Assembly (NCBI RefSeq): GCF_000226095.1
Contig: NC_016477.1
Coordinates: 3,348,001 to 3,412,000 of the forward strand
From: Thermothelomyces thermophilus ATCC 42464
Lineage: Eukaryota > Ascomycota > Sordariomycetes > Sordariales > Chaetomiaceae
Direction of reading: 5' to 3'
DNA length: 64,000 bases
In this document: positions 2,869 to 35,352 of the stretch, in pieces
Layout: every line of letters begins with the position of its first letter
Position numbering within the stretch: the stretch's first letter is position 1
Notes under the pieces: model-generated
The model's database searches: none
The model's input: only the letters and a program-made list of their open reading frames with translations
What the model was told of the DNA's origin: nothing
Made by a program: the position numbers and the translations under genes

Positions 2869-3978
2869 TTATATATAATTGTTAGTAATTTGCTTATATA
2901 TTAGGGGTAGAGGTTTAGAATCTAAGGACTTATAAAAGCCTTAGCTCTATCCAATAGAGCCTTTGTTAAATCCTTAATAACCTAATATAAGAAGTAAGAC
3001 TATTATTATAGTTAGTATAGGTATTGTAAGAGCTATTAGATATATAGGTAATTAGTATATATATCTTTATACTTATAGAAACTATAGGTATAATGGTAAT
3101 AGTAGGAGCTAGCACTAGAATGATCGCGACATTTGCTAAAAGAACGTCTTACTAGAGCTGACTATATATATATTTTGTAGGGCACCTTATAAAGCTTACT
3201 AGCTTTAATATCACTATATTTAGTTAGCTTAAATAATCTAGATACAATTAGTAGAGCACTAGAAACTATAATAGAGTTACTATCAAATTAACTAGAAAAA
3301 GCTAAACTATATAAACTCGCTTAAATTACTAGAATCGCTAGAAAACTACAAAACTAGTAATGAAATCAATCAAACAGAGATAATAGGAACATTTATAGTC
3401 TAGAAGCTTTAATATACTTACACTTTCAAGGCATTATAGGAGTAGGAGTTAACCTACTAGCAATTATAGTATTTATAGCAAGTATACCTAACAAGTTATC
3501 CGTTAATTCGAGCATAGAAGGCATCATCCTATTATTATTATTATAATTAAAACTAATAATACTATTATTACTATAGTTATAATAGCTATATTTAATCTAT
3601 AGCTTTAAAGGAATCGCTCTACTATACTTAACTCTTTTAGACTTCTAAATATAGAAGGCAGGCCCCTAAAGGAGCTATCGAGGTAAGAGCAACAAAGGAT
3701 ATAACACTAAGAACAATATCACTATAAAGCATAGTTAAACGACTACCACGTTTAACTAGGGGGTGTGTCGGAAGCTATGGAGCTTCTTAACGTATTAGCC
3801 ACGCGTTTGCTACAGCTGTATGAGGCTGTTTAACGCATTGGCTAGTCCCTTTGTCTATAAATACTACTCTTTTTGTCTCCTTTGTAGATAGCTTTAATAA
3901 GGTACTCTTTCCTTTATATAGCTACCTACTACAGACACTGCTTTCAACGCTCCCGGAAGCTCATCACTGCGTTCGGCA
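2869..3978 (+). mobile_element. Ty1/Copia-type element A, left copy (3' part, fossil)
   Basis: This is the terminal part of a Copia-type element in + orientation, ending in a 213-bp 3' LTR. It is the reverse complement of the 34,621-36,980 stretch on the other side of the gene island, minus the LINE inserted there. The family assignment comes from the right-hand copy, which keeps Copia reverse-transcriptase and integrase landmarks. It is strongly RIP-mutated except in the LTR. Gypsy-B interrupts it on its left side. Confidence 0.75.
3766..3978 (+). repeat. 3' LTR of Copia-A, left edge of gene island
   Basis: The LTR begins TGTCGGAAGC, directly after a G-rich polypurine tract (CTAGGGGGTG), and ends TTCGGCA. 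A TATA-like CTATAAATA lies at about 3,855. It aligns at roughly 90% by eye with the reverse complement of 34,621-34,830. It keeps many CpA/TpG sites that the adjoining interior has lost. Confidence 0.85.
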
Positions 3979-4652
3979 CCAGGCCTTAGTTTCCATCTGC
4001 AAGTATCGCAACGCCCTTGCACAAGGTCTGTATGTACCCGATGCGTTCTCGAAGTAGTTTGCTTAACAAAGAAGTGGGTTGGCAGCTAAGGTGGCAGGCA
4101 GCAAGGTGTTAGCGAGAGGCGTTGGAGGGGTACTTAGTGACCCTTAATTAATTATCGTCTATTGTTTGTGTGCAATCGTCACGATTAATTACCTAGGTAC
4201 CTATCTCTCGGAGGAGATTTGCTTGGACATGAGCAATGACAAAGAAAGAGAAAGGAACCCGGCTGAGGCTTGACATCACAACTAATACAAAGACTTGATG
4301 ATACAACTCATAAAAAGACTAGCATCTCGCGCCTCCAAGCCTGTTGAACAACTGCCTTTTTTGGGACCAAGATCAAGATCTGGTTGCTTCAGGTAGTTTT
4401 CTCTCAGCTAACGGCGTCCGCACGCAGCCAATCGGATGCACTCCATCATTATCATTGTGCCCTCCTTTTCCCCTTGTTCCCCGAAACATCTGCACAAATG
4501 CTTGTTTACAGAGGTTTACATAGGTAGCTCTCACTCTCTCGAACGGATTTCTCCAAGACTACCTAACTACCACCGCGCCAGGGCTCGGCGTCGTATTAGG
4601 CGTTGGACGCGCCATCTGACGCTCCCGGGACTACACATTTGCCCCGGCGCCC

Positions 4653-4678
4653 TTTTTTTTTGGGGGGGGGGGGGGGGG
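4653..4678. repeat. T9-G17 homopolymer pair
   Basis: A run of nine T is followed by seventeen G in otherwise non-coding sequence. The flanking 3,979-4,652 stretch holds no convincing gene. Confidence 0.9.
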
Positions 4679-4774
4679 AGTGTAGTTAGGTAGATACACT
4701 GAAGGGCATGAATGAGGTGCATGTATGGAGGTCCTAATACCAAGGCACTCGTGCCAAGTACATAAATTACCAAT

Positions 4775-4798
4775 TTGGGAGGCCATAGCCGGCATACC

Positions 4799-4840
<42 letters not shown>

Positions 4841-5080
4841 GGGGTGCGGGAGACCGAACGTCATGGTGGCGCCCGACGAATCCCCCCGTCCTCGACGAAC
4901 TTCGCCTCCTGCCGCCCCTTTGGCCGCCAACCCGCGGCCCCTCGGCACCCAGGGCTGGGTCGACGGCGTCGCCACCCACTCGAGGCCCGAGCACGACCTC
5001 GTCGCCCTCGACAGGCTCCGCAGTGGTTCACGGACCCGTGGTTTGAGCGAATCATGGAGCTTGGTAATTATGAATATTAA
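4775..5080 (+). other. Possible gene relict with poly-Gln (CAG) tract
   Basis: An open frame of 101 codons starts MGGHSRHTK, runs through a (GCA)n tract at 4,801-4,838 read as poly-Gln, and ends DPWFERIMELGNYEY before a TAA. The C-terminal segment looks protein-like, but an overlapping frame (4,861-5,138) is equally open and part of it also looks coding. A frameshifted or unfinished gene is possible. I recognise no family. The repeat itself is certain; the coding status is not. Confidence 0.2.
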
Positions 5081-5754
5081 TTATATGGTGACGGTGACAA
5101 CGGGGTCTGTTCTGCTCGATTCTTTGATTGGGTGTTGAATGTGGAAAAAACCACCAAGTACAGCCCTTCAGTCGCTTGACATTTGGGGAAGCTGTTATCT
5201 CGTCGTTGTCACTCTGCAACACGATCTTTATTGCCGCCGTTGCTGTGGTTTTGATATACTCAGGTGGCTTGGGCAACTGAGAGAGAGCACCGCTTTGCAT
5301 TCAACTAAAACGTTTATCTCGTGTTTTTCAAAAGCGTGTCTGGCCAGCATTCTGCCAGGTGAGAAAAGGTCTTCGGTCGCTGGTCTTGTGCCGCATCGCT
5401 AACCAGTACAATATAGCTGACCAAGGATGCTCTTCCTTTATTAATTAGTTAATAACCCTTTGTTTTGAGCCTTGTCATTTATGGAGCTCCATAGTCACGC
5501 CCAAGTTGTTCAATGCCAAAGAAGGCATGTTCACCGGAACACTGAAGTATTCACGGAACACTGCCACGAAGACAGTCCCAGGGTTATAAAGATTAACATG
5601 TCATTCACCGTACTCCGAGTCGATATGCAACACCCAGAACAGCCATGATATACTATATTGGTGCTAGAACTCTTCAGTGGTTCTCGCACCTCTCAGGCTT
5701 GGACACGTTCACCGCTTCATTGAGGGTTCGTACCTTCAGTATCAACCGCAGACC

Positions 5755-6732
5755 ATGCCGCACTGCACAAGTACTAGGCCGACCCAAACAAGGGCTCGTA
5801 CGAGATCCGGCAGAAGAGCAGAAGATTACCAAAGCTCACCCCCGGAATCTCGGCGTTACTCTCCTCCCCTGGACCGCGACTCCTATTCTTCCCGAAATGC
5901 AGACCTCTACAACTACCGGGGTATAAGCGATGGCCTCCTACGCAGCTCGCCCGAGCCATATGACATCGACGACGAGATTTTGTCTCCGACCGCTCATTAC
6001 AATCCGGGTCGTCGTCTTGGAGACCACCAGCAGGAGCAATACACACTTCCCACATCCCCGGCTCTCTCGGACCACACCAGACCATCATCTCCGGTTCACG
6101 AAGCCTACCATGCGGATTCCAGAAGTAGCGAGACACCAGGCAGTCCTCGTGCTGGCTGGGATCTGATACCCTACTACGACCCAAATGCTGCCAATAGGGC
6201 ATCATCCCCAGGTGCTTCTTCGGATTCCACCCTCGTGATCCAGCTGCCAAGGCTAACTGTCGAATCCGACTCTCCTCCTCCTGCCCATCGACAACGCCGC
6301 GAACGCCGTTTCAGAACCCGAAGCCCTTCCTACACCGACTATTATCCGCGCAGCCAGTCCCGCGCTTTCGACACGCGGAGAAGGGATTCGAATGATACGC
6401 TCTCCTCCAGTCCCCGCCGGTATTACTCCGCCGCCTCCCGCAGCCCCGACCCGCCGCCTCGCAGCTCCGTCTCCTACCGGCCAGCCCGGTACAGCCAGGC
6501 AGCCCCGGCTGCAGGACGATCGTCCCGACGGAGAACAAGAAGCCGCGACCGCCACGCGCGGAGAAATGACAACAACACCTCGGCGGTAAGGACCACCTAC
6601 ATCTATTACCCTAGCGGCAGCACCGTTCAGGTTGACGGCCCCGTCGAGTCCGACTACTACGAGCCGCCCAGCCCCCAGTACCCATCCGGCCGTCACATCA
6701 TCAACCTGGCCCCGAGAAGACTTCGACGTTGA
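5755..6732 (+). CDS. Low-complexity Ser/Arg/Pro/Tyr-rich protein of unknown function
   Basis: This is a single exon of 325 aa. I chose the ATG at 5,755 (context ACCATG) over an in-frame ATG 78 bases upstream, because the upstream residues are unlike the rest. The product is predicted intrinsically disordered: it is rich in Ser, Arg, Pro and Tyr, with many SP/RS pairs, clustered RRR motifs in the C-terminal half (for example RSSRRRTRSRDRHARR) and no membrane segment or folded domain I can name. The SR-like composition could fit an RNA- or chromatin-associated protein, but that is only a compositional guess. A missing 5' exon cannot be excluded. Confidence 0.6.
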   Translation: MPHCTSTRPTQTRARTRSGRRAEDYQSSPPESRRYSPPLDRDSYSSRNADLYNYRGISDGLLRSSPEPYDIDDEILSPTAHYNPGRRLGDHQQEQYTLPTSPALSDHTRPSSPVHEAYHADSRSSETPGSPRAGWDLIPYYDPNAANRASSPGASSDSTLVIQLPRLTVESDSPPPAHRQRRERRFRTRSPSYTDYYPRSQSRAFDTRRRDSNDTLSSSPRRYYSAASRSPDPPPRSSVSYRPARYSQAAPAAGRSSRRRTRSRDRHARRNDNNTSAVRTTYIYYPSGSTVQVDGPVESDYYEPPSPQYPSGRHIINLAPRRLRR

Positions 6733-7191
6733 ACACCTACCCCTCCCTTCCCCCGCGTCCCCCGGAGATTTTGCATTGCTGCGATGCACTTTCGACTCAG
6801 CTGGACTGGGTGAGGTGGTAGAGCTTTAACTTGCAGATGATTAGTTTTAAGAACGTTGAACGTTGTGCAAATACGAGATAGACCGTTGCCTTATGAAGAG
6901 GTTTTCAGTCCTCCTACTAATAGTGACTTCGTAGATAATCATATCTAGGTGTATTCGGGCTCGAGCTACTCACTGTTCTGAACCTCGTTACGAGGTGTGC
7001 GTGTAACATCATATACTTATTCCTGCCAAGGAGAGGTATTGTAACCCCATCGTGGGTAGGAGTGTCCAAGAACAGGTCGCTAGATGAGGCGGGAACTCGG
7101 CTTGTCCCCGAGGAACACACCATATCATTCATTGGACACAATGATCTTCAGCAAACACAGAACTTACCAATTACACCATTCACGCACATAC

Positions 7192-7240
7192 ACATGTATA
7201 TACATACATATATATATATGTGTGTGTGTATATATATCAT
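7192..7240. repeat. TA/TG-type microsatellite
   Basis: Alternating (TA)n, (CATA)n and (TG)n runs lie upstream of the small gene at 7,373. The stretch 6,733-7,372 otherwise holds the presumed 3' region of the preceding gene and the promoter of the next, with no further gene seen. Confidence 0.8.
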
Positions 7241-7372
7241 CCCAGCCTGGTGATGTGGACATCATCCTGCTTACCAGGGCAGTATATCCCACCCGTACAG
7301 AGTAAGAAGCATTCACACCCCTCTTGAAACAAACCATTTCAGCCAAGCAAACATAACTGAATCACGATCAGT

Positions 7373-7561
7373 ATGAGCAAGCAACCTGACAACAAGAACG
7401 CCAACAAGGGACACACGGGGGGCTCCACGCCCGCCCCGCCAGCTCTTCGTCGCGAGGCTGTCTCCGTCCAGGACCCTGTTGAGTACGGCAAGCTGAAACC
7501 CCACCCGGATGACAAGGGCAACCTGATGCAGTACAAGGAGGAGGAGAAAGCTAAGAAGTAG
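7373..7561 (+). CDS. Small hydrophilic protein, 62 aa, unknown function
   Basis: This is a single exon starting MSKQPDNKNANKG and ending YKEEEKAKK. It is very hydrophilic, with no Cys, no membrane segment and no signal peptide; Lys, Pro, Asn and Asp dominate. The leader just before the ATG (CAAGCAAACATAACTGAATC) is A/C-rich, as is common for highly expressed fungal genes. No family is recognised; its size and composition resemble small stress-associated disordered proteins. Clean termination and codon use favour a real gene. Confidence 0.6.
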   Translation: MSKQPDNKNANKGHTGGSTPAPPALRREAVSVQDPVEYGKLKPHPDDKGNLMQYKEEEKAKK

Positions 7562-8152
7562 GCTCTCCCCCACCCGCGTCCCGCGTCCATGGTAACGGGG
7601 GGTTGGCTGGGTTGGCGGGGAAGAGACAGAGCAGTAATAAATAGGAAGAGCACAGGAGCATCAGATAAGGAGTAATAGTGCAAAGCACCGGTGATTAGTC
7701 TCTGCTTTTGCATTAATTAACAGTGGTTGATAGGTAGCTTTGATAGCACGGAGCTGAGAGATGTTCATCATCCCGCGATCGCCCGCCATCCGTAGAAACA
7801 GAAGTGAGGGCAACCGGATCCCCCCTGAAGGAGCAAATATATGTACATATGCTTTCTTAGCCCTTTCTCTCCCCCTAAATCTCTCCCCCTGAATCCCCCT
7901 AAAAAGTCCCTCATCACCGAAACTCCATGGCCTAATTCAGATCCCAAGGTATCATCGACTCCCTCTCTCAACCGCGTTTCCGAGTCAATATTAATCACCC
8001 TCCAAACGCCATGTCAACAATAATAAACAAAACAATGAAAAAAATATAATACACTTTCTCTCTTTTCAGCTTTGATAACTTTTTGCGCCCCCCCCAACCC
8101 CTTTTTTTCAACCCTCGTCGTATTATTCTTGTTCTTTTCGTTCTCTCCTGTT
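7562..8152. other. Intergenic, no gene seen
   Basis: This lies between the convergent ends of the 62-aa gene (+) and the bHLH gene (-). It holds C-rich and T-rich stretches near 8,085-8,140 and presumably both 3' UTRs. Confidence 0.6.
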
Positions 8153-9365
8153 TCACTCCCAACCCGTGACGACCCGCCCCCTGCCCGCAGCAGCGGCCGC
8201 CCGCCCCATCAGCAGCACCTCGAGCCCCTCCATGCGGCCGCGCAGCGCCCCGTTCTCGGCCTCGAGCCCCCGGTTCCGCCGCTCCAGCTGCAGGATGTAC
8301 TCGGTCGCCCGGGCGAGGATGGTGGCCTTGTTGAGCTTGGCCGCCCCGGGCCCCCCGCCGCCGCCGCCGCTGCCGCCGTGCTGCGTCGTCGTCGTCGTCG
8401 TCCCCATGCCGTCCTCGTCGCTCGCCGGCCCGCTCTCCTCCGACGCCGCCGCGGCCCGCTGCGCTAGCTGTCTAAGCGAGGGCACGGCGTCGCGGAGCCG
8501 GGCGATCTTGTCGTTGAGGTTGGTCCGGTACCGCTTCTCGATCATATTGTGGGTTGACTTCTTGGGGCCGAGGGCCGGGGTGGTACCGGTGCTGTTGCTG
8601 CTGCCGTGTTTTGTCTTGGCGGTGGAGGCGGTGGTGGATGCTCGGCGGGCGGTTGTAGCTGTTGTTGTGGCTGTTGCTGCTGCTGTTGTTGACCTGGTGG
8701 TTGGCACCTTCGAGTCGGAGAGGGCGCCGGTTGACGGCTTGCGCCTGGATTCGCGGGAGGGGTACCGTTTTGTCGCTAGCCTGTCGGTCTCTGGAATACT
8801 AGGGAGACTAGAGGGGAGCTGTTGCTGTTGTTGCTCTTGTTGCTGCTGCTGTTGTCGGTGTTGTTGTTGTTGTGGGTCGGGAATGGATCCCTGCATAATT
8901 GGAGGCATTTCGGGGATGGGTGTCGAGGCGTCGACTGCTGATAAGGACAGGTCCAAGGGGTTGATGGCCGGGCTCAAGGAAGCACTCGACGGCTGGGGGC
9001 ACAAGGAAACTGTCTGGCACCCAAAGAGATTCTCGGGCTCGGGGGAGAGCTCTACGCCGTCCCAAGCAGGCCACGAGTCTGTTGAGGGAAAGCCGAATGA
9101 GCTGGCCGAGAGGGCAGGCGAGAGCGGAGATAACGGGGAGGTTGCCGAGTCGGATGTGAAGTCGGCGCCGAAGTCTTCTGTGCTGAAGACAGAGACCGGA
9201 GAAAACTCGGGGAAGGTTTGCTTTCAAGGTGTCAGCAGTGTGACTTGGTTGTCCAAGCACGGAAGGGGCTTGGCAGAATAGTCCCCTCTCTACCCCGGAA
9301 TGAGTCAACTTTGGGGTACAGCACAACGTAATGCGTGTACGGTACCCATATTGTTGACCAGACAT
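8153..9365 (-). CDS. SREBP-like bHLH-leucine zipper transcription factor
   Basis: The two-exon model is 349 aa: exon 1 9,365-9,346 (MSGQQYG), intron 9,345-9,183 (GTACCG...TTCAG), exon 2 9,182-8,153. Phase joins cleanly, and without the intron the frame has a stop and no upstream ATG. Order: a Ser/Pro-rich N-terminus; poly-Gln (about 111-128); a Thr/Ala-rich linker; then bHLH with basic region and helix 1 at about 217-246 (THNMIEKRYRTNLNDKI), an unusually long Gly/Thr-rich loop (about 247-286), helix 2 (KLNKATILARATEYILQLE, about 289-307) and a short zipper. The Tyr in the basic region (EKRYR) is the SREBP-class hallmark, which in known members widens DNA recognition to SRE and E-box sites. 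It ends soon after the zipper with no membrane segments, so it is not a membrane-tethered SREBP. Nuclear role inferred. Confidence 0.85.
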
Positions 9366-12300
9366 TGCACAGGTATAGAGGCAATCTTATCAAGCACTAC
9401 CGCCAACGCAGTGCCGTGGGGGACCACAGCGGGGGATAAGGGGTAGTAAGAGAGGCGGGGTAACTAACAAGATAAGAAGAGTCAAACGACACTGCGTATG
9501 GGTCGATTGTTGTCGACGAGTCGGTGGGTTTGACGGACATGGTCAAGCCGCGCTTGTAAGCGTTGGGGAGTGTTTGATGTTTTCGCTTCGCTGATGACCG
9601 ATGATGAATTCAAAAGTCCTTGGATACAATGTGGGCTGTGGTGGCGGATAGCTAGGGGAACTCGACGCCTTTATTTAAGGCTCGAGAGCGACATCCGGAA
9701 CGCATCGAGGCCGAGCTTCCCCCGCGGCGCCTAGGAAATGGAGCAAACATGATTTTTCGGTCTTGGCGACTTAGACGCGGATGTGTATTGAGTGGTGGCA
9801 GTGTGGCTTTTTGCGACCAGCAAATTTCGCCGTCAGCAGGCGATTTGTTTTCTCAGTCGTACGAGAATGGACTGGGCCGGTTCTGGTAGGTCGAGACCTC
9901 GCGCTCTTTCGAGCGAGCGCCCTGCTGGAGTCTCGGAGACGCCCGCCTGGCCTGGATTGGGCAAAAAATGTCTGGGCGCGCTGCTGGCAGCCGAGCCAGT
10001 GGAACCAAAGCTCTCGGGCATCCCTCCGGCTCCCTCTCACGTGCGAAGTGTGTGTGTCCAGTACTGTATGCCTAAATTATTAACCTTACGTCCGTACATT
10101 AGCACCTACTCCGTGCTTGCACGGTATGCCTGTGCATCGAGGCTAGCATTCAGTAGTGTGAGTAGGTCAAACAAAGTGTCCCGTGTAGCTTAGTTACAGG
10201 AAGCTCTGTGCGATTTCGTCTGTTTCATAAACACAGTACCAGCTACCAAAACACTTGCGGTGATTCTTCTCCTAGCATGTCGAGCCGTTGCCACCAAGTG
10301 AGCTGGGATTCTGGTTTCAAACGCAACGCATCTGTATAACAGAGTAGTATCAGTCTCGAGAAACTGGTTTGACTCTTGCAGTCCATTGATTGGCGCTCTG
10401 GCTCTCCCTCGCATCTCAAAACATGGCAATTGGTAGCGGGGAAACGTTTTTCGCGGTGCAACGTACGTGCATACAGCGGGTGTAGTGTGGTTTAAGGAAA
10501 GACTACGGGAAGCAACGGGAGTTAACGGGTAAGCTTCCGCAAGCTTTCAGGTTTCGCAAGAGTCCGATGAGTCGGTGCCGGAATATTTTGGGTCGACCAT
10601 TGCCTTTTGAATCGTCACAGAATGAAAGAATGGCCTGATATCAGTCGAGGAGGGGCTGGGCCATGTTGCCCCACAAAATGCCCGACTCGGGGGACTGGGC
10701 AAAATGCGTCATCTTGCCACGTGCCGGCGGTGCCAGCCGGTGGCCCGTGACGGTCGTTCTGCGGAGGGTCTCGAGATCTCGATCGCGAAAAATTATCGCA
10801 TGCACAGAGCAGTGCGGAATTACTGTTCAATGCTCCTCCCCAACAGCCCAGGCTCCTTTCAAACGCGACCGGATGTTGCCGAACCCGCTGCAGCTAGTAA
10901 CCGGGCTCCGTCGGCAGTAACCGCCTAGCCAGGTTGGTAATTCATTCGTGACCTGTAACTCGTGCGATTGTTCCATTTGCGGTTTTCAGTCGACTGTTTC
11001 TCGATCGCAAACAACTCAACAAGTTCGAGCTCGATACTCGGATAAAAGAAGCCCCGCTCCGATCGCCAATTTGCAGCGCCGGGGTCCCGTTGAATGGCCG
11101 AGGCACTCTCCACCTCGGCCGGCAGGACCGGTTGCCCGCCGAGAAACTATGACACACCCAGCCAGTACGGCCGCTTTGACCCGCCGAGCTGGATGGCGTG
11201 GTAAACCACTCATTACCTTCCTACGACAAGTATGTCTGCCGAAAATACGAACGGCCACTCGGACGGACGGCGCCATGATGTTCATGCTTTCGGAGATTGA
11301 GGACTTCAGGCAAGTCTTGGATTCCTGAATGAGAGTCTCCTATGATGTCTTGTCATTACGCGCGCACACTACCTAAGCAGGCCAACGAGCTCTACAGAAC
11401 AGATATTGGTCTTGTTTTGGGATCCCATTCTGGAACCTCCAGCCACCGACAACCAGGTTTCGGGGTTCAAGAATGCCGGTCTTCTGCCGGCATCTTCGGG
11501 GTTGCCAAGGCGACCCAGTCCGGAGTACTAATATGCGTTTTCCGGGCTAATGGGCTTGATCGATTTCCAAGTGTAGCCGCGCAGAACGAGATCCAATTCC
11601 CCGGGACCCGACTTCCCTCCCGGCGCCCTCGCCGGGCAGGGTTGACAGCCAATCCTGATGTTTGGTCCAGGTGTGACGCCAAGCCTGAAAATAACCCTGG
11701 GTATGTATGTATGTAATCCGTACTGTACGTACACAGGACGCCCCATCGTAGGGTTAGGCCGGCGATACCCCGACCGGTCACGCCCACTGTGTTTGTAGTT
11801 GAGGACAGCAGGCGATGTAGATCTGTCAAAGGTCGATCGCTGAATCACCGCATGTGAAATCACATTTTCAAGCGTAAGTTAGTGCAGTGGGCGGTTAGCG
11901 GCCGTGGCTCTTCTTGACGACCGAGGCTTCCGCAACTGTAGAGTTGGTGCTTCGCCCTCAATTCGCACCAATTACAGTTTGAGAATGAGTGCAAATGATT
12001 CGCGGCTCGATGGCGGAACATAGCTTCTATGGTGCGAAGGGAAAGAGACGGAATACCTTGGGTTCAAATATTCTGGCGTCTTTAACTATAGCCCTAACCG
12101 CCACTCTGCTTGTTGACTGTAGTTTTGTAGGCTAATTAGTTCCAAATCGTGGCCTCCATTCAATGATGCGGACGATGACTACACATTCTGCCCTTCATCT
12201 TGAGAACTGGCCCGTAGCTCACCTCAGGTTGAGGCGTCAAAACCCGAGCCTGGTCCCAGTCCGCGCCAAACCTGGTACGCTGGCTATGTTTAGAATTGAT

Positions 12301-15984: not shown

Positions 15985-15986
15985 TA

Positions 15987-24564: not shown

Positions 24565-25297
24565 TAGACCTCGAGCCGCTCGCTTTGGTCATCTGAGAGC
24601 GGCCGCGGGGTCTCTTGCGTTTAACCGTTTGATTTTGGATGTTGAGGCGTGAAGGGCTGACGAAATTTGCGCTGGACAAGGGAAGAGAAATTTATCGCTT
24701 GGAGACTGGCTGGAAAAGGGTTGGATATTGAGGTATGGCGCACCTTTGGCAGCTCGGAGGTGAAAGTGATGTGCCGCCGGCATTGACAACCTTGCCGAGA
24801 AAGTCCCTGGCGTGACGCGAGCGAATGGTAATTAAGGCCGGTCGAAGGGGAAGGGGGGAAGCCAAACAACCCTCTGCCTGCCTCACAGCACGATCGGCGC
24901 AAATACCGAGAGGGAACCTTGAGATTGGCCGAGCAGTCAATTTCTAGGCGAGGAGCACGAAGCCTGTGCTATTTTGGCTGCTGCGGAAAAAATCTTTCGA
25001 GGTCTAATTAATTACTCCGTATTGCCGTGGAACATAATTATGATCCATTTTTTTCATTCCTACCAACCTCAAGGATGTCGACAGCTCGTCTTGTCGGTCT
25101 CTTCCCCTCCCCATCCCCTCTGTCTCTTTCCCAGGAAAGAATCTATTAAATCTGATTTTATTTTGTTGATTTCTTTACGTCATTTTCAAAACTCCGGGGC
25201 ATTTGTGGGTCAAGGGATGGATGGTTATTCCCATTTTGCCTTCGAAAACACGAGAGACTTGAGTGGTGACGGAAAAGTCATTTCAATGCGCTATTAA
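24565..25297. other. Convergent intergenic region, no gene seen
   Basis: This lies between the P450 stop (+) and the GNAT gene stop (-). It includes ATTACTCCGTATTG near 25,010. Short frames on the - strand lack coding character. Confidence 0.6.
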
Positions 25298-26011
25298 TTA
25301 CTGGCGCTCCTCCCACCCCATCGGCATCATCATGCCCATCTGCCCGCACGGCATGGCGTCGACGAACCCGTGTTTGGCATACAGCCTTCTGCCGGGCGCG
25401 TCCGCAAACAGCGTAACGTAGGCGCCCCCACCTGCGCCCGTCGTCTCTTCGCCGTCGCCGTTGTCGCCGTTGTCGCCGTTGTCGCCGCCATTCCGGTCCT
25501 CTTCTTGCTTCTCCCTTCCCCCCTCTCCTCCTCCCCGCGGTGCGTGTGCCTTGATGTGCGCCAGCAGGTGGCTCAGCACCGCGCCGCCCAGCCCCCGCCG
25601 CTGGTGCGCCGGCAACACGGCCATGTCGGCGATGTGGAAGTACCAGCCGCCGTCGCCGATGATGCGGCCCATCGCCACGACCGTCTCGTCTTCCTCTTCT
25701 CTTCTTCTTCCTCCTCCTCCTTCGCCGGTTTCTTGTTGTTGCTGTTCTCGTGGCCGTTGTTGTTGTTGTTGTTGTTTTCCCGGGTCCCTGAACGTGATGT
25801 AGCACCCGTACCAGCTGTGGCGCGGGATCGGCGCCGCCTGCGCGGCGGTTTTGGGGGTCAGCCCCGCCGCGCGCCGGAGGCGCAGGTAATCCTGGATGGG
25901 CGGGTAGCCCGGGCGGAGGGTGTAGCCTTCGGGAAGGGCGGGCTCGTGCGTCTGCTCGGCGGCCGATCCGAGTGGGGCCGGATCGGAGGCCGGGGTTATG
26001 GTGGATGTCAT
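25298..26011 (-). CDS. GNAT-family N-acetyltransferase with low-complexity insertions
   Basis: This is a single exon of 237 aa, starting MTSTITPASDPAPLG. The GNAT core is recognisable: WYFHIADMAVLPAHQRRGLGGAVLSHLL (about 123-150) contains strand 4 and the acetyl-CoA P-loop (Q-R-R-G-L-G-G), and YVTLFADAPGRRLYAKHGFV (about 198-217) is the usual C-terminal strand and helix. Three simple-sequence inserts interrupt the core: poly-Gln around 79-97, a Gly/Arg/Glu tract to about 108, and NGD repeats around 175-188. These make it longer than a plain GNAT and probably form surface loops. The acyl acceptor cannot be told from sequence. The probable location is the cytosol. Confidence 0.82.
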   Translation of the reverse strand: MTSTITPASDPAPLGSAAEQTHEPALPEGYTLRPGYPPIQDYLRLRRAAGLTPKTAAQAAPIPRHSWYGCYITFRDPGKQQQQQQRPREQQQQETGEGGGGRRREEEDETVVAMGRIIGDGGWYFHIADMAVLPAHQRRGLGGAVLSHLLAHIKAHAPRGGGEGGREKQEEDRNGGDNGDNGDNGDGEETTGAGGGAYVTLFADAPGRRLYAKHGFVDAMPCGQMGMMMPMGWEERQ

Positions 26012-26797
26012 TTCTTCTTGTTTAAAAATAAAAAAAAAATATTGGGGCTGAGCTGAGTGAGAAAGGTCTGTGTGGCCGATGCGCAGAGCTCACAGTATGA
26101 GAGATTTGATATGGGTTAGTTCGAAGTCGAAAAGCTGAAAGAATTGTACAGTACATGCGACTGGGATTCTGCTGCTAATTAATTATTCGTGGGCATCATG
26201 GCGCGACGCCAGGGCCACCGCCGATCCGGCTCCGATCGGCTCCGAGCCGCCGCTCCCGGACCCCAGTTGCCGGATTCGGCAAGTCGCCCGCCGGCCCCGG
26301 TGCAACACGCAATGGTGCAAAGTAGCAAATTTGATGCGGAGTATTAGGGACAAGGTTAATTCGGGCAATCCAGAGTGTTGAAGGGCAGATGCGGTATCAA
26401 GTGTTACACAAATGTTTGGGCGCGGATGGAACAAGGTAATTTATTAGGCTGCAGCTGAACAAAAAATCGCAAACTGTTAATTCATTGGTTCCGCTCTTCC
26501 GCCCAAGCTCCCGCTCTTTCAACTAAAACTGGGCGAGCCAAGTCAAGGCAGCTTGCCACAAACCCCCATCAGAATAAGCGCGGTACTTAGCTACCCAGCA
26601 TGAAAGGCGGGAAACAAAGCGGTGCTGACGCTTACCGTGAAGCAAACATGCACGATGCCTTAAATATAATTTCATGTGCGCTGGAATGTTTTGGGGCTAC
26701 TCCTTGAGATCCAGTCCATTCCATCTTCCCTAGATTCCCGGCTCATACTAAAATAAAGCAAGCCACCTGTACCGCATACCTTGGTTGCCCAAGACTC
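26012..26797. other. Intergenic, no gene seen
   Basis: This lies between the GNAT start and the next - strand stop. It carries TTGTACAGTACATGCG near 26,143 and GCGGAGTATTAGG near 26,337, two more copies of the dispersed GTAC/CGGAGTA motif type. Confidence 0.55.
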
Positions 26798-27628
26798 TCA
26801 CTTCAGGCCAGGGTAGCTGGAACCCCAATTCTCCTCGTCAAATACAGGGCCCATCTCAGGAGACGCAGGGACAGCGTGTATCTCCACCTCGAGCGGCTTC
26901 GGCGCCTCGACGAACCGGATTGCGACGGCGTGCTCTATCGGGTGCGCCCTGGCCCCGAGTGCGCGCAGCGACCGTGTGAGGTCGGCGGGACGGTCCAGCT
27001 CTTCCCCGGCCATTGCCGGTGCTGCGCCTTCTTTTGGGGACTTGACTCCTTCTGTGCCCGCGGGTTCAAGGGCCAAGACGCCGTGGAGGTGTCGCTCGAT
27101 GAGTTCAAGCCGCCGCAGGAAGGGCAGCAGGGGGCGGCCGTACCCCTCGCTGTCGCTCGTGTCGTCATCACCGCTGTCGATGGAAAGGTTCGAGGAGCCA
27201 GCGCTGGAGAATGCGCCTGTCAGAGGAAGGGCAGTGGCGGGCAACGAATCGTGGCCCTTTGGCAGCCGTCGGCGTTCCAAAAATGCTGTGGCACGGTCCG
27301 CGTCATCATGCTGTTGGAAAGGCATTATGGACGTGCGCAGATGGTGCATCTTCCAGTGCTCGGCGCCTTCCCAGGGGCTAGAGAACGGGCCGAGAATGGG
27401 AGAGAGGTCGTCAGCGTCTTGTGCCTCGTCAGATTTGAATCGCTCGTCGTACTTTTCCAACCCTTTCTTGTATATCCGATTAATTCTGTCCACTTCGCCT
27501 TCTTTTATGGCGCTGTTAGCCGGGGAAACCGACGATCCGGCGCCCGAGAAGCCCAGAGAAGACTTGGTCTCGGCGTGGATGGATGGATTGCGAGGGATAC
27601 AATCGTAGTTCGTCTTAAGATTGGCCAT
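26798..27628 (-). CDS. Unknown acidic protein, 276 aa
   Basis: This is a single exon. I chose the ATG at 27,628 (context CAACAATGGCC), giving MANLKTNYDCIPRNPS. It is probably cytosolic or nuclear: no signal peptide or membrane segment. A charged N-terminal part (EGEVDRINRIYKKGLEKYDERFKSDE) may form a helix. A central acidic Ser/Asp tract (SIDSGDDDTSDSEGYG) is followed by a Leu-rich helix-like segment (LLPFLRRLELIERHLHGVL), and the protein ends DEENWGSSYPGLK. I recognise no family. Eighteen bases before the ATG lies a perfect donor sequence (CAG|GTAAGT), so an alternative model with an upstream exon splicing past this ATG cannot be excluded. Confidence 0.65.
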   Translation of the reverse strand: MANLKTNYDCIPRNPSIHAETKSSLGFSGAGSSVSPANSAIKEGEVDRINRIYKKGLEKYDERFKSDEAQDADDLSPILGPFSSPWEGAEHWKMHHLRTSIMPFQQHDDADRATAFLERRRLPKGHDSLPATALPLTGAFSSAGSSNLSIDSGDDDTSDSEGYGRPLLPFLRRLELIERHLHGVLALEPAGTEGVKSPKEGAAPAMAGEELDRPADLTRSLRALGARAHPIEHAVAIRFVEAPKPLEVEIHAVPASPEMGPVFDEENWGSSYPGLK

Positions 27629-27899
27629 TGTTGAGCTCGACACTTACCTGTAGACGATTGCTCTAACCCAACATCATTTCTGGCATGGGAAGTGCGCTGG
27701 TGTTTGCAAGAGAAGGTTTGAGACAGAACTTGGCATGGGTTTATATCCCCACTTGGAGTCTGGCTTTGTTCTTGTTAGTTTCTTGTCTTTCTTTGTTTAG
27801 GAAGTCGATAACACTCGAGATGTCAATGAAGCCGGAATCGAACGGTGGTCTTGTTCAATTAGCATGCGCCGCCCCAATGGCGATCCTGAGCTTTGGTTC
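27629..27899. other. Intergenic, no gene seen
   Basis: This is the promoter side of the 276-aa gene. It has a T-rich stretch at 27,765-27,805 and no gene. Confidence 0.5.
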
Positions 27900-28240
27900 C
27901 GCGGACGTCATGCGAAAGGACAAAGACCTGCCAACTGCCAAGACGAGCTAGAAATGCCGATTCGGAAGCCTCTTTCGACGGCCGCAAAGATGCGGCTGTC
28001 GTCTTCCGGCCGGGCCCAGATAGGGTTGATGAGCAAGACAAACGGTGGCCCGTCGGAAAGTGGGATGTCCATCGCGTTGCCGCCCGCCTCGGCCGAACGC
28101 TGCAGGAGGGACTTGGTATGCGGGAAAAGACAAAGAAGACGAGCCCGTCGGCGTCCTTGATGGTTTACAAGGTTTCGTGCCATCTGTCGCGTAATGCTTC
28201 CATGAGGGCAAGGTTGGGCTTGATGGTGATGGAAGCATAG
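27900..28240 (-). pseudogene. FAD-linked oxidoreductase pseudogene (C-terminal fragment)
   Basis: On the - strand two adjacent frames match, in order, the C-terminal region of BBE-type FAD-binding oxidoreductases: ITIKPNLALMEALRDRW and TIKDADGLVFF in one frame, then SAEAGGNAMDIP and DGPPFVLLINPIWARPEDD in the next. Between the first two segments there is a TAA (28,167-28,165) where the family has Gln or another residue. A frame change falls near 28,110-28,125. The N-terminal FAD domain and the extreme C-terminus are absent from both sides. The TAA is what a CpA to TpA change of a CAA codon would give, so RIP is a possible cause although the surrounding DNA is not RIP-like. Family assignment rests on remembered sequence pattern. 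Confidence 0.65.
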
Positions 28241-28476
28241 TATTGCCTACATTGCTCAACAGGGTCATCAGCTGACACCTTTTTTTGGAACTTGTTTATG
28301 GCTTATCGCTTCTGATTATCAGAGTAATTCTTTTGGGCTAATATGGTCAATTCGTGACACGCGAGCGTCATTCCTTGTTACGCTTTTGGGTGGCTCATGA
28401 GTTGGCGGCAGGGAACACGGCCAGCCGGGATGTGCGATAGTGTGATCAAAGATAGGTCTTGCAGCCTGCTCTTCGA
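28241..28476. other. Short intergenic region, no gene seen
   Basis: This lies between the pseudogene fragment and the 3' end of the kinase-like gene. Confidence 0.5.
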
Positions 28477-29426
28477 TTATCTCTAATTTAGTTAGCGAAT
28501 GCGTTATACAGAATGATGGCTTTGGTCAACCTCGTCAAGCTTACCTGCGAGTCTTCGTGGCCTTCCTTTAGAGAAGTAGGACGGCATGAGGTGAGGTTGT
28601 GAAAGATGGCCTTTAAATCGTTTGCGGCGTCTTGGGCTGAACGGTAGTTGAAATGCCATAACTTCCATATGATATCTCGGGCAGGATTATCGTCCGACAC
28701 GCGAGGATATTCGCCACGCGCCAGCTTCCGCTGAACAGCTTCATCATCGACTTCGCCAGGGCGACCGTACGGCACAGCCCATTGGGTGATCTCGCAAATT
28801 GCAGTTCCGAGGGCGAACAACTCTAGCTCCACTGTCCCATCGGCAGGCGCCTCGGCGACCGGCATGGGTGGCCAGTAGCGGGGCTCGTATGAGAAGTAGG
28901 TGTGAGGATAGACATTCGGCAGACTTGAGCCGGCAAAGTCGCAGAGCTTGACATGGAGATGATCAAAGACAAGAGCATTCCGTGTCGAAAGATCGCCCCA
29001 GATGACGCCACGGTCGTGGAGGTATTGCACGGCGCTTGCAAAGTCTACGGCCACCTTTAACCGGTCACATATGTCGGGGGCGCTGTGATTCATGATATAG
29101 GTGCGTAAGTCGCCCCAAGGAGAGCGCTCGAGCCGTAGCGCCCAAGCCTCGTTCGTTCCGGGAAGCAGTTCGAGGCCAAGGCAGGCCGTGATATGTGGGT
29201 GCGGCCCGAGTGTATCGTAAACCATAGCTTCGCGTTTCAGGTGGTTGCTTGTATCTTTGGCAAATGCCGGCTTGTCGTACACTTCGCCGTCGATCCAAAA
29301 GCCCTCGGCCTTTAGGACCGACTCGGCGTTGCCCTTTTCCGCGTAGACCAGGCTGAAAGCGGTCCTTCCTAGCGGTTCGAATCTGGCTCTGATTGCCTTT
29401 ACTGCATCCTTGTCGGAAAGCGGCAT
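28477..29426 (-). CDS. Kinase-like protein, 295 aa (spliced)
   Basis: Starts MPLSDKDAVKAIRARF. Kinase-fold landmarks: LKREAMVYDTLGPHPHI (C-helix and following strand, about 63-79), WALRLERSPWGDLRTYI (hinge region), YLHDRGVIWGDLSTRNALV with catalytic-loop Asp145 and Asn150, and VKLCDFAGSS with DFA in place of DFG (163-165). FSYEPRYWPPM and LFALGTAICEITQW fit the activation segment end and helix F. The glycine-rich loop is not evident and the HRD motif reads IWGD, so activity is uncertain. An intron at 28,544-28,483 (GTAAGC, branch GCTAAC, TTAG; 62 nt) lets exon 1 (29,426-28,545) end HEDSQ, followed by Arg and stop. Unspliced reading gives 312 aa with an unlikely tail. Confidence 0.78.
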
Positions 29427-30269
29427 GGTTAGAAGGTATGTCGAACCAAGACCAACTACCTAAGGGTTTGGATGCCTATCGAGATGCAATGGCCAGTTAT
29501 TCGAAATACGGGGCGCGCACTAGCCGCATGGTTCGGTGGACTTTGACACCCGGTAGGGCAGAAGAAAGCGCAGCGACCACTTTTGGAGGTCCGTCCGCCT
29601 TACGCCCCAAACGAGTGTTGGGATTGACCGGCACCAATCATGCTCCTCAACACATGGGATTTGCAAGCAGCATGCATGTAACCTTCTCGTCGCCTGGTTC
29701 GTCGCGTACAGAGAACCCGCTGTATGAAGCTACTGGCCTGTATTGTATGTACTGTACGTCCGGATAGGCGGGGCCACAGCTAGGCGCTTGTGCTGAACCC
29801 CGCCTTAACCGTTGCAGGAGACCGCATTTGCTGGCTGCCTTCCTGGACCAGCTCCACCACCGGGCGGCGGTGGGAGAGGCATCCCTAGCCATCGTCGCTC
29901 CAACACACACTGCTGATTGTGTGAATCGGGGTGCTCAGTTGTTCCACAGATGAGGCTGTCAGTTGCAGTGGTTGCAGTCGTTGCAGTCGTTGCTCAATTG
30001 ATGGCGATGGTGTGTGGGCAGTTTTGCGCAGTCGGTTTGACCTGCGTTTCTGTGGGGCCCGGTCATACTGTATGTATGCAACGGCGCTCAACGGTATCAG
30101 CTGTGCCAACTACCCGTGGCATGCCCCACTTTCCCTCGATCTCCCACATATCGCCCACGTTAAGTGGTGCTCACCACCAATACAACCAAAGCAGCAAAAC
30201 AACTCCTTTTTCAACACCTTATTCAATATTGTCAATTATTACTATCACAACCACGCTTCTTGACCTAAC
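29427..30269. other. Intergenic, no gene seen
   Basis: This is the kinase-like gene's promoter side. It contains TGTACTGTACGTCCGG near 29,748 and a (GTTGCAGT)-like short tandem near 29,958-29,990. No convincing gene. Confidence 0.5.
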
Positions 30270-30432
30270 GAAGATAGAATCACGCGTTAGAGAGGCCGTA
30301 CAGTACCTTCAAGGTTTTCCAGAAGAAAAGTGGCCACTGTTGCCCGACGATTTACCGTTCCCCAAACACGCCTCCACAACCGCTGTAACGGTTCCAAGAG
30401 TGTATTTGCAACTATTTGGTGACGACTCTACG
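30270..30432 (+). mobile_element. pogo/Fot1-type transposase helix-turn-helix remnant
   Basis: On the + strand, KIESRVREAVQYLQGFPEE is followed, after a one-base frame change at about 30,328-30,334, by VATVARRFTVPQTRLHNR and a stop. Together these follow the order of the N-terminal DNA-binding motif of pogo-class Tc1/mariner transposases (charged helix, then VA..ARRF.VP..RL..R). There is no DDE domain or terminal inverted repeat nearby, so it is a small scrap, or a decayed host gene with the same motif. Confidence 0.45.
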
Positions 30433-32312
30433 AGTACACCTAATCTTGGAGAAAAGAAAAGAAGAAGAAGAGGAAGAACACAGCAAAATGGATGATGTGG
30501 CCTCTGCCTGACCAGAGGAAGGCAACAACCCGAAACGGGCAGGCACGAAGCGAAAGGGGCAGGCGCGATGGGAATCGCCGCCCTTGGAGTTGGTGGTGTT
30601 GTTCAGGGGCGACGGTCCCTCGCGAGGGTTAGGGTTGGCCGAGGGTTGCCGAGGCCCTGCAGGGCTCAGCCCGTTATAACTGCCTCGATAGCATCGGACC
30701 AAAGAAAGGCGCTCACAAAAGTGGTATTGGATGGCTGCGAGTATGTTTTTTTTTCCTTTTGGGCTGCGTTTGAGGATGTATTTATATATAATACATGTCA
30801 AGTGTCAGGAAATCCAGTTCCACAGTTGAGAGGTGTGTTTCTGTTACAAGGCTGTGATGGGCCTTCTCCAAAATAGCACCAGAGAGGGGGTAGGAGAAAA
30901 TGGCGATATTATTAAACAACGCGCCATACTTAGCCGGCAGAAGGCAATGCTATATTATATAAAGCAACAAACGTTGGCTCAGCCGTTGCCAACTCACACA
31001 CTGCTTAGGAATGACATCTCGTTTGCCAGAGCGGCTTGTTTGTGCTCATGGTTTGCCGATTATACTTGGTAGTAGTAAAGGTTTTCCGTCGACAGACGAG
31101 GCAACACCCGACAAGCCGATCGAGCAAATCTCAGAGACGCAATGCTTCCATTTACACACAGGCATCTTAGCAGCACAGCACAGCCGACTTTCCCGAATAT
31201 CGGGATCGCAACGTCAAGCTGGAGTGACAGAACTCAGGAGACACCTTTACAGCAGGTAGAAAGACTTAACGTTACGTACTCTGTTGTCACACGATTGCTC
31301 ACCCTGACTTGCTCTCTAAGCAAGCACCCCGGGTTGTTTTGTCTAATTAGACAACATTAATTAGACAACTGACACCCTTGTTCGCTTGCTGTTTGCGCAC
31401 AAACCGGATCATCTTGAACCAGAAAGGGTGACTCAGTTGGCTGAACAAGGTATTTCCCCCCTTTCCCATAAACGTATCTCCAAAGATATTCGAGGGGATG
31501 ATTTTTTTCTCTCTATGTCTGCAACAACTCATTTACGCAGCGTAATGAATTAGAGTGAGTGGATGCAGTGTTGTTTACGACTCCTGAACTTTGACCCTAA
31601 CCCTTGCACTACTGTGGATGTGTACTTGGCGTCTAGGCAGCCGCCGAGGCAGCGGCGATCTCCGTGCAATTTCCGGCGAGATTGCGAACGTCCCAAGAAA
31701 ATCCAAGACAAACCAAGCCGCAGCCCAGCCTCCCGACATGCATGGGTAGGTGGCCCATTGGTTGCTCAGTAAGCCACGTCGGCGGCCGAGAATCACAAGG
31801 AAGGAGTGGGGGTCTCTTGTCGCGTCTTGGCCGGCATTGTTTGGGCTTCGGAGACCACAGACGGCGATAAGATGAGGAGACAATGACGGTGAAGGAGGGA
31901 ATCAACGCTGGAAGAAAAGAAAACATCGCGCTGTTGTTGGGGGGGTATTAGAGAAAGGAATTGGACAAATATCGAGCGCCTCCAGAAAGATTAACCTTAA
32001 TAAAAGAAACTTGTCGCGGTCAATAAAAAAGCAAAAACGATCTTTGTCCATCCCCAATGCTAAATGTCGGTTGGGCAATCCCGTTTTTTCCGCGCCTTTC
32101 CGCTTCCCCCAATTGTCCACCGCCTTTCCCCGAATGCGGATGTGTGGATGTGTGTATGGTTTGTGTGTGCGCGTGCGTGCGGGCTGTGCACGGAAGAGCC
32201 CATCGGTCCTCCGCAGAACCGCCGGGCCCATGTCATTCGCTCACAGGTCGCCGTTGCCGATGTCTCTGGGTTCGGATTTCGGGAACATAGAGCGCGGGAG
32301 TCGTGTCGCTGC
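30433..32312. other. 1.9-kb region with no recognised gene
   Basis: Frames of up to 130 codons exist but lack coding character. Two copies of TAATTAGACAAC lie at about 31,346-31,369 in a small inverted arrangement (GTCTAATTAGAC). The right end is the 3' UTR side of the CYSTM gene. Confidence 0.5.
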
Positions 32313-32815
32313 TTAGAAGCAACAATCCAGGCATTCGAGACAGCACTCGCAAGCCTCACCGCAGAGCCAGCAGCAGCAGAGAGTGGCAATGCTGTAAGGA
32401 GCAATTGCAGTCAGTTATGTACACGTTCTTTTCGGAGAGGGAGATAGCGAGAAGGAGAAGAAAGAAGCAGCATCCGGAGCTTACCAAGTGTACAAGCAGC
32501 CGTGGCTCTTCTCTTCCTTAGGCGGGGGAGCTTCCTGGTATTGCATCTGCTGCGGAGGCGGGTAACCCTGCGGAGGATAACCCTGAGGAGGAGGGTAGCC
32601 CTGAGGAGGATAGCCCTGAGGAGGAGGGTAGCCCTGAGGAGGGTAGCCACTGCGACGTTGGAGAGACAATCGGTCAGCTCATATCGAGAAGGTTGAATTC
32701 TGAAGGGCGAATTGGTGGTGGTGGTGTGATCGAGGGACAGCGGGTTCAAGAATCGGCGCCCTGGATACGATAGCACCGTAGATGCGACTTACCCTTGGGG
32801 AGGATACTGCGACAT
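32313..32815 (-). CDS. CYSTM-type protein: Gly-Tyr-Pro-Pro-Gln repeats plus Cys-rich membrane tail
   Basis: Three exons (32,815-32,793; 32,649-32,485; 32,391-32,313) give 88 aa. The introns of 143 and 93 nt are GT-AG, and both joins restore phase. The protein starts MSQYPPQGGYPPQG. Residues 8-40 are GYPPQ/GYPPPQ tandem repeats, then QQMQYQEAPPPKEEKSHG, then a C-terminal tail (about 57-88) with 12 Cys, including CLYTC, LCCCWLC and ECCLECLDCC. This is the architecture of the cysteine-rich transmembrane (CYSTM) module: a proline-rich cytosolic part and a short Cys-rich hydrophobic tail placed in the plasma membrane, often linked to stress tolerance. The function here is inferred from architecture only. 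Calling only the central exon misses the Cys tail. Confidence 0.88.
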
Positions 32816-34620
32816 GATGACTGCTTGGAGTGCGAGAGTTCGTAAAGTGGTTTGGTGGTGGTGAAACACTGGAGAGCAGCAGTTGGAGGTGAAGAAATAA
32901 AGAGGAAGTCGAAAAGCTGCAAGCGCAAAGCTGCAAGCGCGCAGCTGTATGTGCCTTTACCCTTGCTACAACGGTGCGGCGCCTGCAAGTTCACTAGCGA
33001 ACGGAACAGTGCAGGATTGGGACCAACAGTGGGGACCCATTCTCGACAACTGGCTGGTGGGGCCCACACTGCCAATGCTTGGAATGCTCAGCCGAAGGAT
33101 CTCGGTGCCGACCCATCCGACAACCGCCCACCGCAGTCCAGCTGTGCCCTTTGAACGCCAATTTGAAAGGAGGCGGGGAGTGGCCAAGAGGCATTGTTAA
33201 GAGTTCAGACAGCGTGGAGGGTGCAGAATGCCTTTGGCTATTTGTATGTGCGTACTTATGTACCTCCGTACCTGTCGTATGTATGGACATACGAAATACA
33301 GCTAACTGCGGAATACGCAGTCTAAGTGTGGTAACAGCCCTGCCTCCTGGGCCCGGTCCTCCACACGAGACGGAGCGGAGCCGATTCCGCTGGCGCGAGT
33401 CTAGGTATGTGGGGTCCCGCGGCAGTGCAGTCTCGGCGCCGATCGAGTCGCTCGGGACTGGGCTTGTCGCTCTCGGGATTGGCGACCCGAGATCGGACAG
33501 GCCGATCCGGAAGAGTCCACCGTACTTCGACGGAATACTGCGAAGCGTGGCTGTAATCGGCACCTGCAGTAGTGTACAAAATGAAAACACAATTGAGATG
33601 GGATGACGCGGCATCAGTGGCACGTGCCCAACCCCAGGATAGGAACTGGGGGGAGCGAGATGAAACACTGAAAATAAAAAGGAAAAAAGGAAAAAAAAGA
33701 CTAATTGCTTGCAATGATATATAATGATTCCTTTTGGCACTAGTTTAGGTACGGAGGTATTTGATGGTTTATTTGCGAAAGAAAAAACCCTGCCTCGGGC
33801 CACAGACAGCTGAACATTCAGAGTGGGCCCACCCAGAATACCTTCACGGCCACCATGCCTTGGGAACTGGTCAGGCTACGTGATGGCCAGACGACAACAG
33901 CTTAACGAAACAATGCCGCCCTTGTGTGAAAGCCGGATTTTTTTCTCTGTTGGATTTCCAAGAATGCTCCATACAGGTGATCATTTGGATGAGGTGAAGT
34001 TTATGTTGTTGCACTACTTAGCCGGAATACATACATACATACATACAGAATGTGGCTGTGGCATTCTGCAAGGTTCTGAGCGAGGCATTACATGCCACAA
34101 AAGTTGCACTTACAGTAATTACATGTGCCTGTAACTGCCCTATCGAAATAATGGTGTCATGGCAACATGTCACGCGTTTTCGCTCACTTTTCAAGTTCGA
34201 GGAAGGGGTATCGGAGCTTGTGTTACTAATAAATCTTCCAGTCAACCATGACACGAGAGTTGGGCTATGCTTGACGTTCTTGACCCCTGCTTTTCCCACG
34301 ATGCTGTTACACTCGAGACTTTGACCGAATTCACTGACATTTCAAAACCTCTTGTTTAGAGCGCAGGCGAAAAGGGAGCATTTCATAAATATCCAATGAT
34401 GCCTGCAGGAAACCAGATCTTAATGCTTATAAGGAGGCCTATCTGGTATTCCCAGGCTTTTCCCGTGGAAAGCAACAAGAACCGTCTAAAGAGACTAAGA
34501 GATACAAATATCCATTGCCATCGCTAACGACTAATTACAGGACACACAGGGCTTCTGCCGACCCCATCATGACCCTAACAAACAACTCTTCCCTGACACG
34601 GTAGCTAGTAATTAGCTTCT
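32816..34620. other. CYSTM promoter and island edge, no gene seen
   Basis: Overlapping frames of 175 (+) and 269 (-) codons at 32,994-33,803 have mixed composition and no family features, so they were not called. The stretch contains a TATGTACCTCCGTACC motif near 33,258, a palindromic CATACGAAATACAG segment near 33,290 and an (ATAC)n microsatellite at about 34,027-34,046. Dinucleotides stay non-RIP up to the LTR at 34,621. Confidence 0.5.
34027..34046. repeat. (ATAC)n microsatellite
   Basis: Five tetranucleotide units in intergenic DNA close to the right edge of the island. Confidence 0.85.
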
Positions 34621-34830
34621 TGCCGAACGCAGTGGGAGCTCCGGGAGCGTTGAAAGCAGTCTACAGTAGGTGGCTATACAAAGGAGACAGTGCCTTATTG
34701 AAACTATCTATAAAGGAGACAAAAAGGAGTAGTATTTATAGACAAAGGGACTGGCTAATGCGTTAAACAGCCTTATATAGCTGTGGCAAACGCGTGGCTA
34801 ATACGTTTAGAAGCTCTACAGCTTCCGACA
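34621..34830 (-). repeat. 3' LTR of Copia-A, right edge of gene island
   Basis: This 210-bp LTR is the reverse complement of 3,766-3,978. On the + strand it begins TGCCGAACGC and ends TTCCGACA, followed by the complement of the same polypurine tract (CACCCCCTAG). Differences from the left copy are mainly transitions plus a few small indels. Confidence 0.85.
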
Positions 34831-35352
34831 CACCCCCTAGTTAAAGGCGATAGTCGTTTAACTACACTTTATAGTGATACTGTTCTTGGTGTTATGTCCT
34901 TTGTTACTCTTACCTCGATGGCTCCTTTAGGGGGCCTGCCTTCCGTATTCGGAAGTCTAAAAGAGTTAAGTATGGTAGAGCAATTCCTTTGAAGCTATAG
35001 ATTAAATATAGCCATTGTAACCCTAGTAGCGATAGTATTACTAGTTTTAATTATAATAATAATAATAGAATGACGCCTCCTATGCTCGAATTAACGGATG
35101 ACTTGTCGGGTACGCCTGTTACGAACACTATAACTATTAGTAGGTTGACTCCTACTCCTATAATGCCTTGAAAGTGTAAGTGTGCTAGAGCTTCTAAATT
35201 ATAAGTATTTCTATTATCTCTATTTAATTAATTTTATACTAGTTTTATAGTTTTCTAGTGCTTTGCTAATCGTATTAAGATTATTTAAGCTAACTAAATA
35301 TAGTAATATTAAAGCTAGTAAGCTTTATAAGGTGCCTTATGAAATATATATA

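What the first reader, a model, noticed from the sequence alone, without database searches (positions are those of the whole stretch)
3766..34830. A 30.6-kb gene island bracketed by inverted Copia LTRs
The LTR at 3,766-3,978 and its reverse complement at 34,621-34,830 mark exactly where RIP-degraded DNA stops and normal gene DNA starts. Both elements present their 3' LTR to the island. This could be coincidence of two insertions, a large inversion between elements, or a mobile or duplicated segment captured between two elements. The LTRs could also act as outward promoters or chromatin boundaries.
Basis: partly seen in the sequence, partly recalled or inferred. Interest (0 to 1): 0.7.

Follow-up and report, generated by a model that had tools for sequence, protein, structure and literature searches.

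The report
Gene island between two transposon nests
A stretch of ordinary fungal genes lies between two independent old transposon insertions, each of which later swelled into a large block of mutated DNA as other transposons jumped into it.

Summary
In detail: LTRs of 213 and 210 bp lie at 3766-3978 (+) and 34621-34830 (-), exactly where RIP-degraded DNA meets normal DNA. The bracket is nevertheless two independent insertions. Outside the window, each flanking AT-rich block turns out to be one Copia element with its own intact 5-bp target duplication: CCAGG|LTR...LTR|CCAGG over 74,312 bp on the left, CTTCT|LTR...LTR|CTTCT over 54,906 bp on the right. Founder pieces are colinear between blocks; four inserts subtracted from the right block leave 6,999 bp, the size of un-nested copies. 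Duplications agree within blocks and differ between them, which argues against inversion between the elements and against capture of the island. Elsewhere, 27 of 27 tested LTR pairs share a duplication (23 exact, 4 with one transition; shuffles average 1.04), spans reach 133.7 kb, and 22 of 27 hold one Copia reverse transcriptase each, always on the founder strand. 22 of 22 LTR ends examined face un-RIPed DNA. Nested clusters with a TSD-verified LTR base element are known in fungi (PMC4522978), so this is a long, clean case of a known kind. Promoter or boundary roles are untested.

The parts
1..2876 (+). 3' part of a nested LTR element (its LTR-like end at 2548-2876) inside the left Copia founder
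   Evidence: inverted copies in the right block, I1-I6 and I8; LTRb matches
2877..3765 (+). 3' internal part of the left Copia founder
   Evidence: matches right founder at 34831-35353 and 36648-36924, minus strand
3766..3978 (+). 3' LTR of the left founder; its 5' LTR is at C6:3277667-3277879, outside the window
3979..3983 (+). Target-site duplication CCAGG of the left founder (other copy at C6:3277662-3277666)
3979..34620 (.). Gene island, ordinary un-RIPed DNA between two insertion sites
   Evidence: composition and RIP index; Pfam domains in 5 of 10 frames tested
8153..9223 (-). Frame with helix-loop-helix domain
   Evidence: PF00010 E=9.6e-14
20584..21144 (+). Frame with fungal rhodopsin domain
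   Evidence: PF20684 E=4.3e-29
23225..24298 (+). Frame with cytochrome P450 domain
   Evidence: PF00067 E=5.4e-50
25298..26089 (-). Frame with GNAT acetyltransferase domain
   Evidence: PF13508 E=2.8e-08
28488..29459 (-). Frame with protein kinase domain
   Evidence: PF07714 E=1.3e-13
34616..34620 (+). Target-site duplication CTTCT of the right founder (other copy at C6:3437527-3437531)
34621..34830 (-). 3' LTR of the right founder; its 5' LTR is split, at C6:3414591-3414753 and C6:3437477-3437526
34831..35353 (-). Right founder, internal piece
35354..36647 (.). 1.29-kb repeat inserted in the right founder
36648..40735 (-). Right founder, internal piece with Copia reverse transcriptase (RVT_2) at 38158-38751
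40736..52687 (-). Nested 11.95-kb LTR element
52688..54248 (-). Right founder, internal piece, colinear with two adjoining left-founder pieces
54249..64000 (-). Second nested 11.94-kb LTR element, continuing to C6:3414186 outside the window

Best explanation
Two copies of one Ty1/Copia-type element inserted independently, in opposite orientation, into ordinary gene DNA 30.6 kb apart. Later LTR elements inserted into the bodies of those copies, and RIP mutated the nests, turning two founders of about 7 kb into AT-rich blocks of 74.3 and 54.9 kb. Whatever lands inside a founder leaves its two LTRs outermost, so its 3' LTR lies exactly at the island edge. The island is the DNA left between two insertion sites. 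Shown: target duplications that match within each block and differ between blocks, colinear founder pieces, a right block whose length is accounted for, and the same bracket at 27 of 27 tested places. Inferred: that later arrivals prefer the heterochromatin formed on RIPed founders, for example through the chromodomains found in some of them.
For: Matching duplications CCAGG and CTTCT. Founder pieces in the same order in both blocks. Right block minus four inserts = 6,999 bp, un-nested copies 6,983-7,432 bp (spans). Genome-wide: 27 of 27 pairs, 23 exact and 4 with one transition; shuffled mean 1.04, maximum 8 in 200,000. 22 of 27 brackets hold exactly one RVT_2 match, each on the founder strand (for 26 brackets; the 27th from positions). 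22 of 22 LTR ends have un-RIPed outer flanks.
Against: The left founder lacks about 580 bp that the right one has, at the site of its 60-kb nest, and that nest was not resolved insert by insert. 2 of 9 nested inserts gave no duplication in the scan. 5 of 27 brackets have no RVT_2 match. In 2 of the 27 pairs I moved an LTR edge by 2 bp past the end of the match, reading the terminal TG/CA as RIP-altered. 25 of 78 LTR places were not paired.
Confidence: 0.93

Rival explanations
1. The island was inverted by recombination between the two oppositely oriented elements after they inserted.
For: The two elements are inverted repeats that share LTR and internal sequence, a suitable substrate.
Against: One such inversion would exchange the inner flanks, so each block would carry two different 5-mers. 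Both blocks carry matching ones.
Confidence: 0.03
2. The island is a mobile or captured segment carried between two elements as a composite.
For: Only the bracketed arrangement itself.
Against: The outer ends of the composite carry different 5-mers, CCAGG and CTTCT. A 2.8-kb piece of the island occurs once in the genome.
Confidence: 0.02
3. The LTRs at the edges act as chromatin boundaries or outward promoters for the island (compatible with the best explanation).
For: RIP signature changes sharply at all 22 LTR ends examined.
Against: A sharp edge is expected anyway, because RIP acts on repeats and the repeat ends at the LTR. No chromatin or expression data were available.
Confidence: 0.1

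Closest known systems
Nested TE clusters with an LTR base element and verified target duplication, Mycosphaerella graminicola (PMC4522978, section 8 read)
   Same: An LTR base element with a matching target duplication around a GC-poor cluster of later insertions; the paper reports 49 clusters with an LTR base, 35 with a verified TSD.
   Different: There many base families and clusters of 7.5-63 kb; here one Copia family (the one I searched with) and brackets up to 133.7 kb.
Nested repeats in AT-rich blocks of Epichloe festucae (PMC6218096, passages seen)
   Same: [quoted passage not shown] nested repeats in the AT-rich ones, ascribed to RIP.
   Different: The passages I saw do not report single founders with matching duplications at the block edges.
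Chromodomain gypsy elements such as MAGGY (PMC3350952, passages seen)
   Same: Chromodomain and RVT_1 matches lie in nested elements of the left block.
   Different: Targeting was not tested here; only position inside Copia-founded blocks was seen.

Membership tests
Ty1/Copia LTR retrotransposon (founders) | Paired LTRs with TG...CA ends | tested here: met
Ty1/Copia LTR retrotransposon (founders) | 5-bp target-site duplication | tested here: met
   CCAGG and CTTCT; 27 of 27 pairs, 4 with one transition
Ty1/Copia LTR retrotransposon (founders) | Copia-type reverse transcriptase (RVT_2) | tested here: met
   22 of 27 brackets, one each, founder strand
Ty1/Copia LTR retrotransposon (founders) | Integrase upstream of reverse transcriptase | not tested
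   No integrase search was run
Ty1/Copia LTR retrotransposon (founders) | Primer binding site inside the 5' LTR | tested here: inconclusive
   GTTATRAGCC follows 5' LTRs; likeness to the initiator tRNA-Met anticodon arm is recalled, not tested
Nested cluster with LTR base element | Base element pieces colinear around insertions | tested here: met
   about 580 bp missing in the left founder
Nested cluster with LTR base element | Matching target duplication at the outer ends of the cluster | tested here: met
Composite or captured mobile segment | One shared target duplication at the outer ends of the composite | tested here: not met
   CCAGG on the left, CTTCT on the right
Inversion between two elements | Exchanged target duplications | tested here: not met
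LTR chromatin boundary or promoter | Histone-mark edge or transcript start at the LTR | not testable with these tools
   no chromatin or expression data

The most novel reading that the evidence does not exclude
In this genome one Copia family seeded much of the AT-rich heterochromatin. It inserted into un-RIPed gene DNA; each copy was RIPed and became a landing pad for other elements, notably chromodomain gypsy elements, so blocks of up to 134 kb grew from single 7-kb insertions while their edges stayed fixed at the founder's LTRs.
Probability: 0.4. Interest if true: 0.6.

Novelty: new member of a known kind. Interest (0 to 1): 0.35.

Why it matters
It settles the question for this locus and shows a simple test, matching target duplications across a whole AT-rich block, that tells independent insertion from inversion or capture. 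If most AT-rich blocks of RIP-active fungi have one founder and fixed edges, the growth of heterochromatin by inside nesting could be ordered block by block, and seed families told from filler families.

Tried and rejected
Inversion and composite capture: rejected on the target duplications. tRNA genes or Rfam RNAs as insertion targets: none found in the window (ARAGORN ran with the bacterial code). Duplicated island: a 2.8-kb piece is single-copy; the two long-query searches gave only matches of 166 bp or less, but did not list the island itself, so they are weak. Dating founders against nested elements by LTR divergence: 2 transversions in 373 bp for the two founders, 3 in 4,780 bp for eleven nested pairs; the expected direction, but too few to use. 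Synteny with relatives: none are held. I considered reading avoidance of AT-rich DNA from the single RVT_2 per bracket, but with 2.7% of the genome in the brackets few extra copies are expected, so that argument rests on the flanks, taken from best-scoring LTRs only. Paper searches listed no title on nested founders in this organism; two returned nothing and the terms were narrow.

Full report
Setting. The window is C6:3348001-3412000 of a 38,744,216-base, seven-contig genome. Size and contig number fit, from memory, Thermothelomyces (Myceliophthora) thermophilus; no call confirms the name. A passage of PMC7882544 lists Thermothelomyces thermophila among genomes with RIP over more than 10% of the assembly.

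Observation. Internal element sequence follows outward on both sides, so both show their 3' LTR to the island. Composition and RIP indices switch at the LTRs.

The two blocks. I read C6:3198001-3462000. The LTR recurs at the far edge of the left block on the same strand, and in two parts in the right block on the opposite strand. The flanks are CCAGG on both sides of C6:3277667-3351978 and CTTCT on both sides of C6:3382621-3437526. Each block is therefore the inside of one insertion. In the right block the 5' LTR is itself split by a nest of 22.7 kb. Founder pieces of the two blocks align in order, except that the left founder lacks about 580 bp at the site of its 60-kb nest. Subtracting two 11.9-kb elements, the 22.7-kb nest and a 1.29-kb repeat from the right block leaves 6,999 bp; un-nested copies elsewhere span 6,983 to 7,432 bp. 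The left block was not resolved insert by insert. Seven of nine nested inserts scanned show an exact 5-bp duplication of their own. Of the two that failed, the nest in the right 5' LTR reads CTATA and CTGTG at its two sides, a difference of two transitions, and the second 11.9-kb element showed none.

Genome-wide. Three searches gave 78 full-length LTR places (from, each of which scored only its best 40 of 216 to 244 candidates). I paired neighbours on the same strand in 5'-to-3' order. All 27 pairs whose two outer flanks I read match, 23 exactly and 4 by one transition (flanks; count). In two pairs I placed the LTR edge 2 bp beyond the end of the match. Shuffled flanks give 1.04 exact matches on average and at most 8 in 200,000 trials; of 702 non-sibling combinations 28 agree within one mismatch. 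The brackets span 1,043,403 bp; 22 of 27 exceed 10 kb and the largest is 133,713 bp. They use 53 of the 78 places plus the split LTR; 25 places stay unpaired because a partner was not in the list or flanks were not fetched. Of 88 RVT_2 matches, 21 fall in the first 26 brackets, never more than one per bracket and all on the founder strand; the 27th bracket holds one more on its strand (positions). Five brackets have none. At 22 of 22 LTR ends for which I held 1 kb on both sides, the outside is GC-richer (0.45-0.62 against 0.27-0.43) and lacks the RIP signature (composite index at most 0.26 outside, at least 0.76 inside); duplicate loci were dropped before that count.

Limits of the genome-wide claim. 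Only brackets of this one LTR family were sought, among its best-scoring copies. A third AT-rich block begins near C6:3453500 with no match to this LTR up to C6:3462000, so this founder is not visible at every block edge. What share of the genome's AT-rich DNA has such founders is unknown.

Island. Ten open frames were compared with Pfam; five gave domains (helix-loop-helix, fungal rhodopsin, P450, acetyltransferase, kinase) and five gave none. A 2.8-kb piece occurs once in the genome. I found nothing that marks the island as a mobile unit.

Reading. The island is gene DNA left between two independent insertions. Its inverted bracket is what chance gives: of 20 neighbouring intervals among the 27 elements, 8 are opposite in orientation and 5 have both 3' LTRs inward (counted). 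A single inversion after insertion would have exchanged the duplications, and a captured composite would share one outer duplication; neither is seen.

How the blocks grow (inferred in part). 16 of 149 listed chromodomain matches lie in the brackets, against 4.0 expected by length (150 of 330 candidates were scored). Two of them are in nested elements of the left block, and four RVT_1 matches lie in the same block. Enrichment of repeats in repeat blocks is expected on any model, so this does not prove targeting. Passages of PMC3350952 report that the MAGGY chromodomain binds H3K9me2/3 and directs integration to heterochromatin. A seed-and-fill sequence, Copia first and chromodomain elements later, fits these facts.

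Known work. PMC4522978 (abstract passage, other passages and section 8) describes 78 nested clusters in Mycosphaerella graminicola of 7.5 to 63 kb, 49 with an LTR base element and 35 of those with a verified target duplication. PMC6218096 (passages) describes nested repeats in the AT-rich blocks of Epichloe festucae. The kind is known; the length of the brackets and their founding by copies of one Copia family are what this genome adds.

Noticed in passing
window 35354-36647: A 1.29-kb repeat sits in the right founder, with about 20 bp of founder sequence aligned on both sides of it. It has at least 40 copies at 87-100% identity and keeps 53% GC despite a strong RIP signature.
   Followed up: partly
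genome-wide, not in the window: 30 of 149 chromodomain matches (my count) lie in unbroken frames of 1264 or 1287 aa, so some gypsy-type families look untouched by RIP although the older nests are heavily mutated.
   Followed up: no
G000 C7:1260190-1393902: The longest bracket, 133.7 kb with duplication CTCTA, is centromere-sized; whether it is a centromere was not tested.
   Followed up: no
G000 C1:2946338-2946762: Two LTRs of the family lie 5 bp apart on the same strand, possibly a solo LTR beside a longer element.
   Followed up: no
G000 C6 from about 3453500: A third AT-rich block begins without a match to this LTR in the part read.
   Followed up: partly
G000 C7:3910306-3938624: A second short interval, 28.3 kb, has the same bracket with both 3' LTRs inward.
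   Followed up: no
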